Source of the DNA: Bacteroidaceae bacterium | Lineage (GTDB): Bacteria; Bacteroidota; Bacteroidia; Bacteroidales; Bacteroidaceae | Assembly (NCBI GenBank): GCA_017622815.1 | Contig: JAGAQH010000034.1 | Location: forward strand, 1 to 49,451 | Direction: 5' to 3' | Length of the DNA: 49,451 bases | Shown: positions 44,843-49,451 of the stretch, one piece after another | How the letters are laid out: each line of letters starts with the position of its first letter | Position numbering within the stretch: position 1 is the stretch's first letter | Notes under the pieces: model-generated | What the model was told of the DNA's origin: nothing | The model's input: only the letters and a program-made list of their open reading frames with translations | Database searches by the model: none | Translations under genes and position numbers: made by a program

Positions 44843-44875
44843 CTCTACTTTGCCGTTACTTTGCCCAAAAAGTGG

Positions 44876-44883
44876 TAACTTTG
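44876..44883 (+). promoter_or_regulatory. -7 box for maeB
   Basis: TAACTTTG lies 35 bp before the ATG. Two further ACTTTGC words lie just upstream (near 44847 and 44858), so alternative boxes are possible. Confidence 0.65.
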
Positions 44884-44918
44884 CAAGCGAATTAGTTTAA
44901 CTTAAGGTAAAAGTTTTT

Positions 44919-47219
44919 ATGGCAAAGATTACAAAAGAGGCTGCCTTGGCATATCATGCCGAGGGCAAGCCTGGCAAGATAGAGGTAGTTCCCACCAAAC
45001 CTTACAGTACCCAGACCGACCTTTCCCTGGCTTACTCGCCGGGTGTGGCAGAGCCTTGTCTGGAAATCCAGAAGAATCCCGACGATGCCTACAAGTACAC
45101 CAGCAAGGGCAACCTTGTGGCCGTGATAAGCAACGGCACCGCTGTGCTTGGCCTCGGCGACATTGGCGCCATGAGCGGCAAGCCCGTCATGGAGGGCAAG
45201 GGACTGCTCTTCAAGATATATGGCGGCATTGACGTGTTCGACATAGAGGTGAACGAGAAGGACCCCGAGAAGTTCATCCAGGCGGTCAAGGCCATTGCCC
45301 CCACCTTCGGCGGCATCAACCTGGAGGACATCAAGGCGCCCGAGTGCTTCGAGATAGAGCGTCGCCTGAAAGCCGAACTGGACATCCCCGTAATGCACGA
45401 CGACCAGCACGGCACGGCCATCATCTCCAGTGCAGGTTTGCTCAACGCCCTGGAAGTGGCAGGCAAGAAGATTGAGGACGTGCGCATAGTGGTGAACGGT
45501 GCAGGTGCCGCGGCCATTTCATGTACCAAACTCTATGTGGCTCTGGGTGCACGCAAGGAGAACATCCTCATGCTGGACAGCAAGGGCGTGATAACCGACG
45601 ACCGCGAGAAACTGACCCCCGAGAAGCAGGAGTTTGCCACACCGCGCCGCGATGTGCATACCCTGGAGGAGGCCGTCAAGGGTGCCGACGTGTTCCTGGG
45701 CCTCAGCAAGGGCGGTGTTCTCTCGCAGGACATGGTACGCTCCATGGCAGACATGCCCATAGTGTTCGCCCTGGCCAACCCCGAACCCGAAATCACCTAC
45801 GAGCAGGCCATGGAGGCACGTCCCGACGTGCTCATGTCCACGGGCCGTTCCGATTATCCCAACCAGATAAACAACGTAATCGGTTTCCCCTACATCTTCC
45901 GCGGTGCGTTGGACACCGCCGCAACCGCCATCAACGAGGAAATGAAACTTGCCGCCGTGCATGCCATTGCCGCACTGGCCAAGAAGCCCGTGCCCGATGT
46001 GGTCAACGAGGTGTACAACGTCAACAACTTCACCTTCGGCAAGGACTACTTCATTCCCAAGCCCGTTGACCCGCGCCTGATCACCGAGGTGAGCATGGCC
46101 GTGGCAAAGGCCGCCATGGAGAGCGGTGTGGCACGCAAGCAGATAACCGACTGGGACGCTTACTCCGCACACCTGAAGAACATCATGGGACAGGAGAGCA
46201 AACTCACCCAGCAACTCTACGAGACAGCACGCCGCAATCCCCAGCGCGTGGTGTTCGCCGAGGGCATACACCCCACCATGCTCAAGGCTGCCGTGGAGGC
46301 CCGCAACGAGGGCATCTGCCATCCCATACTCCTTGGCAACGACGAGATGATAGCCAAGAAGGCGGCAGAACTGGAACTCTCTCTCGAGGGCATTGAAATC
46401 ATCAACCTGCGCCACGACCGCGAGGCTCCACGACGCGAGCGCTTCGCACAGATCCTGGCAGAGAAGCGTGCCCGACAGGGTTACACCTTCGAGGAGGCCA
46501 ACGACAAGATGTTCGAGCGCAACTACTTCGGCATGATGATGGTGGAGACGGGCGAGGCCGACGCCTTCATCACCGGCGTCTACACCAAGTACAGCAACAC
46601 CATCAAGGTGGCCAAGGAGGTTGTCGGCATCAAGCCCGGCTACGAGCACTTCGCCACCATGCATATCCTCAACTCCAAGAAGGGCACGTTCTTCATCGGC
46701 GACACCCTCATCAACCGCCATCCAGGCACAAACACCCTGGTGGACGTGGCACGACTGATGGAAGGTGCCGTGCGTGTCTTCAACCACGAGCCCGTCATGG
46801 CCATGGCCAGTTACTCCAACTTCGGTTCTGACACCGTTGGTTCACCTGCCGAGGTGCACGAGGCCGTCCGCATCCTTCAGGAGGAAGACCCTTCACGCCT
46901 CATTGACGGCGAGATGCAGATAAACATCGCCCTGGACAAGGAACTCCGCGACCGCAAGTACCCCTTCACCCGTCTTCGCGGCAAGGACGTGAACACCCTC
47001 GTGTTCCCCAACCTCTCCAGTGCCAACATGGCCAGCAAACTCATCCAGTACATGTCGCCCGACGTGGAGGTTATCGGCCCCCTGCAGATAGGTCTGAACA
47101 AGCCCATCCACTTCACCGACTTCGAAAGCAGCGTGCGCGACATCCTCACCATCACCGCCGTAGCCGCCATCGATGCCATCGTCTCCAAGTGCAAGTGCAC
47201 CGAGAACTGCCTGATCTGA
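44919..47219 (+). CDS. maeB: NADP-dependent malic enzyme with phosphotransacetylase-like C-terminus
   Basis: 766-aa MaeB-type enzyme converting malate to pyruvate and CO2 with NADP. The N-terminal malic domain has [33 protein letters not shown] and [12 protein letters not shown]. The PTA-like part starts near residue 440 ([17 protein letters not shown]) and acts as a regulatory domain in relatives. Length is complete. The last 16 codons plus terminator (47172-47307) recur at 49102-49260. Confidence 0.96.
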
Positions 47220-47307
47220 TTGAACGGTGAGCGGTTAACGGTTAGCGAAAACTCAAAGTATTCAGTCATATATAGAGCGCCAGCGGAACATCACCGCTGG
47301 CGCTCTT
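47172..47307 (+). repeat. maeB 3' end, left copy of a long direct repeat
   Basis: This copy contains the codons for [15 protein letters not shown], the stop, GAGCGGTTAACGGTTAGCG, CAGTCATATA and the hairpin AGAGCGCCAGCGG/CCGCTGGCGCTCT. Apart from a few substitutions and an indel, the same order occurs at 49102-49260. Confidence 0.88.
47274..47307 (+). terminator. maeB terminator
   Basis: Stem AGAGCGCCAGCGG with CCGCTGGCGCTCTT across a short loop. The same hairpin recurs at 49227-49260. Confidence 0.85.
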
Positions 47308-47380
47308 GTCATCAGCCATTAAGGATCTTACCAAACGGACTTAAAATAATCAAATATCTTATGCTTTTCCGTCAAAACTC

Positions 47381-47410
47381 TTGCAAAAATCTCAAAAAGG
47401 TGTATATTTG
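47381..47410 (+). promoter_or_regulatory. Promoter of the DUF4143 ATPase gene
   Basis: TTG at 47381-47383, a 19-bp spacer, then TATATTTG at 47403-47410, an excellent fit to the Bacteroidota promoter. The spacer is almost filled by iteron 1. Confidence 0.85.
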
Positions 47411-47469
47411 CACCGTGTAAAATCTCAAAAAGGTGTAAAACATAGAGGTTCAGAAATCTCAAAAAGGTG
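47387..47469 (+). repeat. Three 16-bp iterons over the ATPase promoter
   Basis: AAATCTCAAAAAGGTG occurs identically at 47387-47402, 47420-47435 and 47454-47469, spaced 33 and 34 bp (about three helical turns). The first lies between the promoter boxes; the other two lie in the leader, ending 14 bp before the ATG. This is a likely operator array. Confidence 0.9.
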
Positions 47470-47483
47470 CGGATGACATCATT

Positions 47484-48833
47484 ATGAAGCGTAAAATATA
47501 TCAGCAACTCCTTGATTGGAAGGAGAAAAGAAACGGTGAGGTGGCACTACTTGTAGAGGGAGCACGACGTATCGGAAAGAGTTATATCGTAGAGGAATTC
47601 GCCAAGAATGAGTATGAGTCATACATCCTCATTGACTTCAATAAGGCTCCCCAGATGGTAAGAGATTGGTTTGACCTCTATCTGGAAGACCTCGACACGT
47701 TGTTCCTCTATCTGAGCCAACACTATAAGGTAAGGCTCCATGAGCGCAAGTCGCTTATTATCCTTGATGAGATACAGTTATGCCCCAGAGCGAGAGCAGC
47801 CATCAAGTTTCTGGTGGCCGACAGAAGATATGACTACATTGAGACGGGATCTTTGGTAAGTATCAAGAAAAACACACAAGGCATCGTGCTCCCATCGGAA
47901 GAACGTTCTATTCAGATGTACCCTATGGACTTTGAAGAGTTTCTTTGGGCCACAGGTAATGATATGCTGATGGACTTGATACGTAAGATGTATGCAGAGA
48001 GAAAACCGATGGGACAGGTTTTCCATCGTCAGGCAATGGATGCTTTCCGTCTCTATATGATAGTTGGAGGAATGCCGCAAGCCGTCAAAAAGTATGTTGA
48101 GACCAAAGACTTTGATGCCGTAGATGCAGCTAAACGTGATGTGCTGACAATCTATCGTAATGACATCTTCAATTATGCAGGTGAGATGGCAGACAAGGTG
48201 GTGTCTATCTTCGACCAGATTCCTCCCCAGCTCTTCAAACATGAAAAGAAGTTTCGGTTGTCAGCCCTGAGACCAGGTGCGAAATACCGCGATTGGGACG
48301 ATGCATTCTTCTGGCTGAAGGACGCGAGGGTTGTCAATATATGCTACAATTCGACAGAGCCGAACATAGGACTTAAGATGAATGAAGACCGTACGACTTT
48401 GAAGTGTTATATGAACGATACGGGCTTGCTAATCAGTCATGCTTTCGATGAAAAGGGCATCGTCTCGTCTGAGATTTACCAGAAACTGCTCTTTGGAAAG
48501 CTGGAGGTGAACGAGGGAATGCTCATTGAGAATATCGTGGCCCAGATGCTGACAGCCAGCGGTAACAAACTCTTTTTCTACAGTAAGTCGTCAGAGGAAG
48601 CCGAGGAACGAATGGAAATAGACTTCTTGCTTCAAAAGGACAAAGTGACCAGTCGTCACAATATCCGTCCGATAGAAGTCAAAAGCGGCAAGAACTACAC
48701 TTTATCTTCCCTAAAGAAGTGTATGAATAAGTTTGAAGAGTATATGACCACTCCTACCGTTTTGCATGCAGCTGACTATAAAGTAGAGGATGGTATCACC
48801 TATCTTCCGCTTTACATGACACCTTTATTGTAA
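47484..48833 (+). CDS. AAA ATPase with DUF4143 domain
   Basis: 449-aa protein of the archaeal-type AAA_14/DUF4143 family. Walker A is GARRIGKSY (residues about 25-33), Walker B LIILDEIQLCPRA, followed by ETGSLVSIKKN. The C-terminal DUF4143 part shows KCYMNDTGLLIS and a nuclease-like core MEIDFLLQKD...IRPIEVKSGKNYT. Function is not settled for the family. Its codon use is more AT-rich than maeB, its leader carries three iterons, and it lies between duplicated maeB ends, all suggesting acquired DNA. Confidence 0.88.
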   Translation: MKRKIYQQLLDWKEKRNGEVALLVEGARRIGKSYIVEEFAKNEYESYILIDFNKAPQMVRDWFDLYLEDLDTLFLYLSQHYKVRLHERKSLIILDEIQLCPRARAAIKFLVADRRYDYIETGSLVSIKKNTQGIVLPSEERSIQMYPMDFEEFLWATGNDMLMDLIRKMYAERKPMGQVFHRQAMDAFRLYMIVGGMPQAVKKYVETKDFDAVDAAKRDVLTIYRNDIFNYAGEMADKVVSIFDQIPPQLFKHEKKFRLSALRPGAKYRDWDDAFFWLKDARVVNICYNSTEPNIGLKMNEDRTTLKCYMNDTGLLISHAFDEKGIVSSEIYQKLLFGKLEVNEGMLIENIVAQMLTASGNKLFFYSKSSEEAEERMEIDFLLQKDKVTSRHNIRPIEVKSGKNYTLSSLKKCMNKFEEYMTTPTVLHAADYKVEDGITYLPLYMTPLL

Positions 48834-48881
48834 GTACAAGGAGCGTAAGTCTCGTATTGGCGCTATTAGCTTGATGATAGT

Positions 48882-49175
48882 ATGTCCTCGCAACGGTATC
48901 AGGAATTCGTAGCAGAACGGACACGACTGCTTGAACGCATCAAGGAGTTGGAAGCAGAGAACGCCGAGCTTAGGAAAAGGCTTGGCGAACCTGTTAACCC
49001 TGTGCCCTCAGCCTCCAATGCTATGCAGAATCTGTCACTACAAGAGAAGATGGATTTGTTTTGTAGTTTGTTTAAGGGACGTGATGATGTGTTTGCGAGA
49101 AGATGCCATCGTGTCCAAGTGCAAGTGTACCGAGAACTGCCTGATCTGATTGAACGGGGAGCGGTTAACGGTTAG
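48882..49175 (+). pseudogene. N-terminal fragment of a TOTE-type primase/helicase protein
   Basis: 97 codons open. Residues 1-75 show a coiled coil (RTRLLERIKELEAENAELRK) and then LSLQEKMDLFCSLFKGRDDVFARR, which matches the start of the archaeo-eukaryotic primase domain in TOTE conflict-system proteins, normally far longer. After FARR the reading frame enters the maeB 3' repeat out of frame (HRVQVQVYRELPDLI), so the gene is broken exactly at 49101/49102. It has probably lost function. The TOTE assignment is from motif recall, not a search. Confidence 0.65.
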
Positions 49176-49260
49176 CGGATGAGCGGTGAGCGAAAGTTCA
49201 TAGTACTCAGTCATTCAGTCATATACAGAGCGCCAGCGGAGCATTCCTGCTGGCGCTCTT
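49102..49260 (+). repeat. maeB 3' end, right copy of the direct repeat
   Basis: This repeats the end of maeB: codons for [15 protein letters not shown] (in a frame different from the broken primase), stop, GAGCGGTTAACGGTTAGCG, CAGTCATATA and the terminator hairpin at 49227-49260. It is about 20 bp longer than the left copy through an added GATGAGCGGTGAGCG. Confidence 0.88.
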
Positions 49261-49347: not shown

Positions 49348-49432
49348 TGCCATAAAATATGTTAATATGCAAGCGTCTTGTCTAAATAATATCAAAGTTT
49401 CCGCCATAATATTTGGTGGTTCGGATTATTTT

Positions 49433-49451
49433 GTTAGCAAGCAAGCAAGCA
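49433..49451. repeat. AGCA tetranucleotide repeat at the right edge
   Basis: At least four AGCA units run to the last base; the full length cannot be seen. Confidence 0.6.

What the first reader, a model, noticed from the sequence alone, without database searches (positions are those of the whole stretch)
47172..49260. Accessory insertion flanked by a duplicated maeB 3' end
The last 16 codons, stop and terminator of maeB appear twice, 1.9 kb apart, with slight divergence. Between them lie an AT-richer ATPase gene and a broken TOTE-like fragment. The right copy cuts the fragment exactly where homology starts. This looks like an integration or recombination scar that restored the 3' end of maeB, possibly a recurrent site for defence or mobile DNA.
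Basis: partly seen in the sequence, partly recalled or inferred. Interest (0 to 1): 0.8.

Follow-up and report, generated by a model that had tools for sequence, protein, structure and literature searches.

The report
Defence gene pasted behind maeB
A single candidate anti-phage gene appears to have been pasted behind a metabolic gene in a gut-type bacterium, leaving a doubled gene end as a scar; similar scars were unusually common around relatives of this gene, which hints at how one of the commonest candidate defence genes spreads.

Summary
In detail: the last 15 sense codons, stop and terminator of maeB lie at 47172-47307 and again at 49102-49260. Between them are an intact ATPase gene (47484-48833) and 220 nt of a TOTE-type primase gene, cut at 49102. 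The ATPase matches PADLOC's candidate single-gene defence family PDC-S01. Copies of the unit, 83-99% identical, sit elsewhere in related species and end at different points behind the ATPase gene. No integrase or fixed right end was found. Best reading: one-sided homologous recombination in maeB from another lineage, closed on the other side by illegitimate joining at a 4-bp GATG; this is supported by the different sequences behind the two copies, but not proven. None of 17 other maeB loci carries the unit. Close flanking direct repeats occur at 23 of 134 genes of this family against 14 of 383 others (p=1.4e-6); after moving related genes over, 28 of 179 against 3 of 327. Ten of those 14 others match PADLOC models, against 6 of 30 random repeat-free genes. 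A second regularity: 69 of 179 PDC-S01-like genes carry a leader array of three or more direct repeats, mostly at 33-bp or 23-bp pitch, with locus-specific motifs.

The parts
44919..47219 (+). maeB (malic enzyme fused to a phosphate acetyltransferase-like domain), 766 aa, intact
47172..47307 (+). left copy of the repeat: maeB 3' end, stop and terminator
47308..47337 (+). 30 nt between terminator and unit, shared with the maeB downstream region of G026, not found behind the right copy
47338..47483 (+). leader of the unit; 10 of 14 aligned copies share sequence from about 47332-47342 onward
47386..47471 (+). three direct repeats (AAATCTCAAAAAGGTG), pitch 33 and 34 bp; the only sites in the 2.57-Mb draft genome at up to 1 mismatch
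47484..48833 (+). ATPase gene, 449 aa, AAA_14 + DUF4143, PADLOC PDC-S01; PD-(D/E)XK-like C-terminus
48882..49101 (+). first 73 codons of a TOTE-type primase-helicase gene, truncated
49102..49105 (+). GATG shared by TOTE gene and maeB at the junction
49102..49260 (+). right copy of the repeat: stranded maeB 3' end, stop and terminator

Best explanation
A solitary defence-candidate gene with its own leader, followed by part of its TOTE neighbour, entered behind maeB on a DNA piece that carried a maeB 3' end from another lineage. Homologous recombination in maeB anchored the left side; the right side was closed by illegitimate joining at GATG inside the recipient's own maeB end. The recipient's old maeB end and terminator were thereby displaced to the right of the insert, and maeB stayed readable. 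This is homology-facilitated illegitimate recombination (HFIR). Shown: the anatomy, the 4-bp overlap, different sequence behind the two copies, copies of the unit in other contexts with variable right ends, maeB loci without the unit. Inferred: the donor, the order of events, and that one event did it.
For: Between the copies only the ATPase gene and the TOTE fragment stand out among the reading frames; no integrase. The one inverted pair around the unit is made of the two terminator hairpins. Right ends vary: ten copies, the window included, end at ten points between L073 positions 1242 and 1673 behind the ATPase gene, two of them one base apart and three before the TOTE start codon; L084 has an internal deletion instead. 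Overlap GATG at the junction. Behind the left terminator lies a sequence shared with G026's maeB downstream region, behind the right one a different sequence, which an exact same-chromosome duplication would not give unless changed later. Two of six other loci searched for an unoccupied counterpart had one, and both are two-sided: G125 against G132, 9 of 329 mismatches on the promoter side and 43 of 318 on the other (p=3e-7); G095 against G101, 3 of 224 and 18 of 200 (p=4e-4). HFIR is in print as a proposed model for displaced immunity genes in Vibrio (passages of PMC5361080).
Against: No donor with maeB - ATPase - intact TOTE was found (0 of 17 maeB loci). No crossover shows in maeB: identity to G026 is 94-99% in the 150-bp bins from 44850 to 46950; the only drop (0.79, bin 47100) holds the length-variable intergenic repeat. 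Over the whole tail the left copy is nearer G026 (158/170) than G042 (148/177); only a short stretch matches G042 while the right copy's counterpart matches G026. The two tails differ at 8 of 124 ungapped sites; that is more than the unit as a whole against its G026 copy (16 of 1502, p=2e-4), but not more than the unit's own non-coding part (7 of 152, p=0.60), so tail divergence does not prove two alleles. In the repeat alone the G095 contrast is weak (2/132 against 8/132, p=0.10). Flanks may evolve at different rates. A 4-bp overlap can occur by chance. A case with identical repeats (L135, 73 bp, 100%) fits a same-chromosome duplication as well.
Confidence: 0.52

Rival explanations
1. Break repair in one chromosome: a break or template switch behind maeB was healed by copying the ATPase unit and returning upstream in maeB, which duplicates about 160 bp locally; later allelic recombination changed the flank of one copy.
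For: Repeat lengths vary widely (37-510 bp among the 23) and some pairs are nearly identical (L135 100%, L089 97%, L182 97%, and 99% at the DUF1016 gene in L142). The left edge shares GACTTAAAATAA with the G026 site, a possible microhomology. Tail divergence is compatible with ageing after one duplication.
Against: In the window the sequences behind the two copies differ and the left one is the one shared with G026; this needs a second event.
Confidence: 0.26
2. Gene-driven, homing-like insertion: the ATPase-nuclease cuts the target and is copied in during repair.
For: PD-(D/E)XK-like residues invariant in 38 relatives (E349, D380, E398, K400) and a fitting order of helices and strands in the model; repeats are enriched around this family.
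Against: Similar repeats flank genes of other kinds, such as AbiD, DUF1016 and Bro-N proteins, so the scar does not need this protein; no target motif was seen; activity untested.
Confidence: 0.12
3. Site-specific integration of an element that carries the gene 3' end, as with tRNA-targeting islands.
For: Gene 3' ends and a tRNA 3' half in some repeats (L087 tRNA-Met, L188 leuS by eye). tRNA-Met recurs: repeat in L087, a tRNA 3' half on the left of L112, sequence of the same region in L091, and an intact tRNA-Met beside the full unit in L073.
Against: No integrase and no fixed core; the left flanks of L087 and L112 share 393 bp at 96%, so these two are one event; other repeats have other content.
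Confidence: 0.07
4. Assembly or binning artefact at a contig end.
For: The contig ends 191 bp behind the right copy, in a tetranucleotide repeat that also lies at other contig ends.
Against: A join at a 4-bp overlap is too short for k-mer assembly (general knowledge), and the right copy is a distinct sequence; flanking repeats also occur at an ATPase gene of an isolate genome (L150, Segatella buccae ATCC 33574).
Confidence: 0.03

Closest known systems
Homology-facilitated illegitimate recombination, e.g. proposed for displaced T6SS immunity genes of Vibrio cholerae (PMC5361080, passages read)
   Same: One anchored side, one non-homologous side, old gene end stranded downstream
   Different: Here the insert is a solitary defence-candidate gene behind a metabolic gene, and similar repeats recur around one gene family in several phyla
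PDC-S01 candidate phage defence gene (PADLOC; PMC13356809 and PMC12988326, passages read)
   Same: Protein family, E=4e-113
   Different: Those passages treat abundance and phylogeny; they do not mention flanking repeats or a leader array
Small variable segments of E. coli, S. aureus and S. pyogenes genomes (PMC2884548, passages read)
   Same: 10-18% of segments flanked by direct repeats; HFIR proposed
   Different: There 66-94% of the repeats are under 30 bp; here 37-510 bp, though my test could not see very short ones
Islands that integrate into tRNA or gene 3' ends (recalled)
   Same: Duplicated gene 3' end at both borders
   Different: No integrase, no fixed attachment core seen

Membership tests
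PDC-S01 (AAA_14 + DUF4143) | profile match over the whole protein | tested here: met
   PADLOC 376 bits, residues 1-446; PF13173 82.4 and PF13635 69.8 bits, both over cut-off
PDC-S01 (AAA_14 + DUF4143) | anti-phage activity | not testable with these tools
   validation is said to be pending for most PDCs of the core defensome (passage of PMC12988326)
TOTE conflict system | complete primase-helicase gene | tested here: not met
   only profile positions 1-23 of 230, below cut-off
HFIR scar | one junction in homologous sequence, one with little or no overlap | tested here: inconclusive
   GATG overlap on the right; crossover on the left not visible
HFIR scar | foreign allele on the anchored side | tested here: inconclusive
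   different flanks behind the two copies, few diagnostic sites in the tail, divergence not above the unit's own non-coding part
Site-specific integrative element | integrase gene and fixed ends | tested here: not met
   no integrase among the reading frames between the copies; variable right ends
PD-(D/E)XK nuclease | core fold and catalytic residues | tested here: inconclusive
   residues invariant in 38 sequences, order of elements fits (pattern recalled), fold comparison could not be run

The most novel reading that the evidence does not exclude
Solitary defence genes, PDC-S01 above all, travel as bare single-gene units without transposase and settle beside host genes with a duplicated piece of the neighbour (37-510 bp) as scar, possibly helped by the ATPase-nuclease itself; PDC-S01 genes carry a private operator array of fixed pitch, so that each answers to itself alone.
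Probability: 0.2. Interest if true: 0.85.

Novelty: new variant of a known kind. Interest (0 to 1): 0.6.

Why it matters
[quoted passage not shown] A recognisable scar would let one date and trace its gains without any mobile-element gene, and the private leader array gives a direct handle on what the protein binds.

Tried and rejected
maeB as recurrent site: 0 of 17 other loci. Integrase or intact element: none found. Gene 3' ends as the general rule: only some repeats hold one; L150 seems to duplicate a 5' region (by eye). My first impression that the left tail is simply G042-like and the right one G026-like did not hold on full alignment, and tail divergence as proof of two alleles did not hold against the unit's non-coding part. 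Literature: DUF4143 (1 paper), TOTE conflict (0), AAA_14 (570 hold the letters, 20 listed, unrelated), HFIR with duplication (20), PDC-S01 (3), defence genes with direct repeats (9), single-gene defence with direct repeats (933 hold two of the three terms, 12 listed, unrelated), PADLOC candidates (4), COG1373 (7). No listed title or abstract start, and no passage that I read, reports these flanking repeats or arrays; most of these papers I saw as listings only. Errors of mine: 14 of 24 control positives were slicing artefacts; mis-placed minus-strand genes; one search is the corrected count, the hairpin count was not rerun, so its L085 and L283 rows are void. One search failed and was rerun. 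After the report check I added a base rate for PADLOC matches and shifted odds slightly: best explanation 0.55 to 0.52 because of the non-coding comparison, local duplication 0.25 to 0.26, site-specific integration 0.05 to 0.07 because tRNA-Met recurs.

Full report
OBSERVATION. The repeat is real and far beyond chance. The left copy continues from an intact maeB; the right copy begins in frame at codon 752 and is joined to a truncated TOTE-type gene with the overlap GATG. Between the copies lie an intact 449-aa gene and the fragment, and no reading frame that looks like an integrase.

THE CARGO. The protein has AAA_14 and DUF4143 domains and matches PADLOC's PDC-S01 models along its whole length. 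In 38 sequences of 52-96% identity to it, Walker residues (G31, K32, S33, D95, E96) and E349, D380, E398 and K400 are invariant. The predicted model (mean pLDDT 88, pTM 0.88) has helix 344-358, strands 363-368, 377-384, 394-399, helix 408-416, strand 425-428, the order expected of a PD-(D/E)XK core as I recall it. No solved relative by sequence at E up to 0.1; comparison of folds could not be run.

THE UNIT SITS IN MANY PLACES. In 139 genomes of the genus, 52 had a match to 47310-49101, weak ones included. The best eight are 83-99% identical over much or all of the ATPase gene, in other contexts. G026, nearest in maeB among the 17 (95.8% over 2587 bp), has a copy on another contig that differs at 16 of 1502 sites. 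Of 14 copies aligned at the left edge, 10 share sequence from about 47332-47342 onward and 4 begin later; five copies share some 50 bp more to the left. Behind the ATPase gene the copies end at different points: ten copies, the window included, at ten positions (L073 1242-1673), while G104 has the full TOTE gene and L084 an internal deletion. Eight matches begin at base 1 of their contig, as repeats do in draft assemblies. Remnants with internal deletions exist (L098, L106). The more constant left side may simply reflect selection for a working leader.

EMPTY SITES. None of the 17 other maeB loci shows the ATPase. Joined flanks of six ATPase loci were searched in the genus; the search scored two candidates per genome and its list was cut. 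Two had an unoccupied counterpart: G132 for the G125 locus (one match of 547 bp, 91%) and G101 for the G095 locus (tRNA-Met; 292 bp, 95%). In both, the promoter side of the filled locus is closer to the counterpart than the other side. Homology around these sites is short, so the comparison is local.

REPEATS AROUND THE FAMILY. A first pass found direct repeats near 19 of 90 ATPase loci. The corrected test (800 bp each side, blastn E<1e-6) gave 23 of 134 for the narrow family and 14 of 383 other genes, p=1.4e-6. Of the 14 I chose ten to scan, leaving out L095, L175, L182 and L285: all ten matched PADLOC models, four of them PDC-S01. Base rate: 6 of 30 randomly drawn repeat-free controls, out of 329, also match some PADLOC model at the same threshold; these include AbiEii, PDC-S05, SoFic and a diverged PDC-S01 gene, and two that look generic (an ABC-type gene and a DNA ligase-like gene). 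So at least 10 of 14 against 6 of 30. With PDC-S01 relatives moved over, the split is 28 of 179 against 3 of 327 (p=8e-11), 11 homologs of other positives set aside; it was made after seeing the positives, and the remainder still holds at least one diverged PDC-S01 gene, so the narrow test is the conservative figure. At least three positives are of another kind by eye: L172 (leader repeats), L253 (tandem array), L182 (dispersed repeat). Inverted matches occur at 4 of 134. Fourteen of 27 repeats, two of them mis-placed and counted as negative, have a strong hairpin in at least one copy, against 15 of 216 random segments (two chances per repeat), in keeping with gene ends and terminators.

THE LEADER ARRAY. 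Of 179 PDC-S01-like genes, 69 have three or more exact 10-mers at even spacing within 300 bp upstream, against 11 of 333 other genes, of which seven lie beside a PDC-S01 start; five PDC-S27-like genes were kept apart (one positive); downstream of PDC-S01-like genes 6 of 179. Pitch: 32-34 bp in 55, 23 bp in 11, other in 3. The motifs fall into 38 groups sharing no 9-mer. In the window's draft genome the motif occurs three times at up to one mismatch, all here. The first copy overlaps a promoter-like TTG...TATATTTG (47381-47410; consensus recalled). I infer autoregulation by the ATPase; this was not tested.

MECHANISM. HFIR explains at once the doubled tail, the absence of ends and enzyme, the short overlap and the unequal flanks. 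Against it stand the missing donor, the lack of a visible crossover in maeB, few diagnostic sites, and a tail divergence no greater than that of the unit's own non-coding part. Local duplication followed by allelic exchange remains possible, and a contribution of the nuclease is not excluded. That AbiD-, DUF1016- and Bro-N-type genes also show such repeats (one gene each) speaks for a general route rather than one driven by this protein.

Noticed in passing
window 47386-47471 and leaders of 69 of 179 PDC-S01-like genes: Leader arrays of direct repeats with a pitch of mostly 32-34 bp or 23 bp and locus-specific motifs.
   Followed up: partly
window 49380-49451; L077, L078, L060: Recurring short reading frame ending in GGSDYFVSKQASKQAS... 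over an AGCA tetranucleotide repeat, followed in the longer copies by a hairpin-like stretch and a new reading frame; looks like a phase-variable leader or attenuator; several contigs end in it.
   Followed up: no
L073 1261-4101; L076 7955-10807: Full TOTE-type primase-helicase genes, in G104 directly behind the ATPase; in L112 the ATPase end is followed by sequence from behind the TOTE stop, without the TOTE gene.
   Followed up: partly
L037 (G026), downstream of maeB: An IS-like element with ends GTTCGACGAATT / AATTCGTCGAAC sits near the place where the window has the ATPase unit.
   Followed up: no
L142 1762-2823; L161 924-1838: A DUF1016 gene with 159-bp flanking repeats (99%) and an AbiD gene with 93-bp repeats (98%): the same kind of scar around other defence genes.
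   Followed up: no
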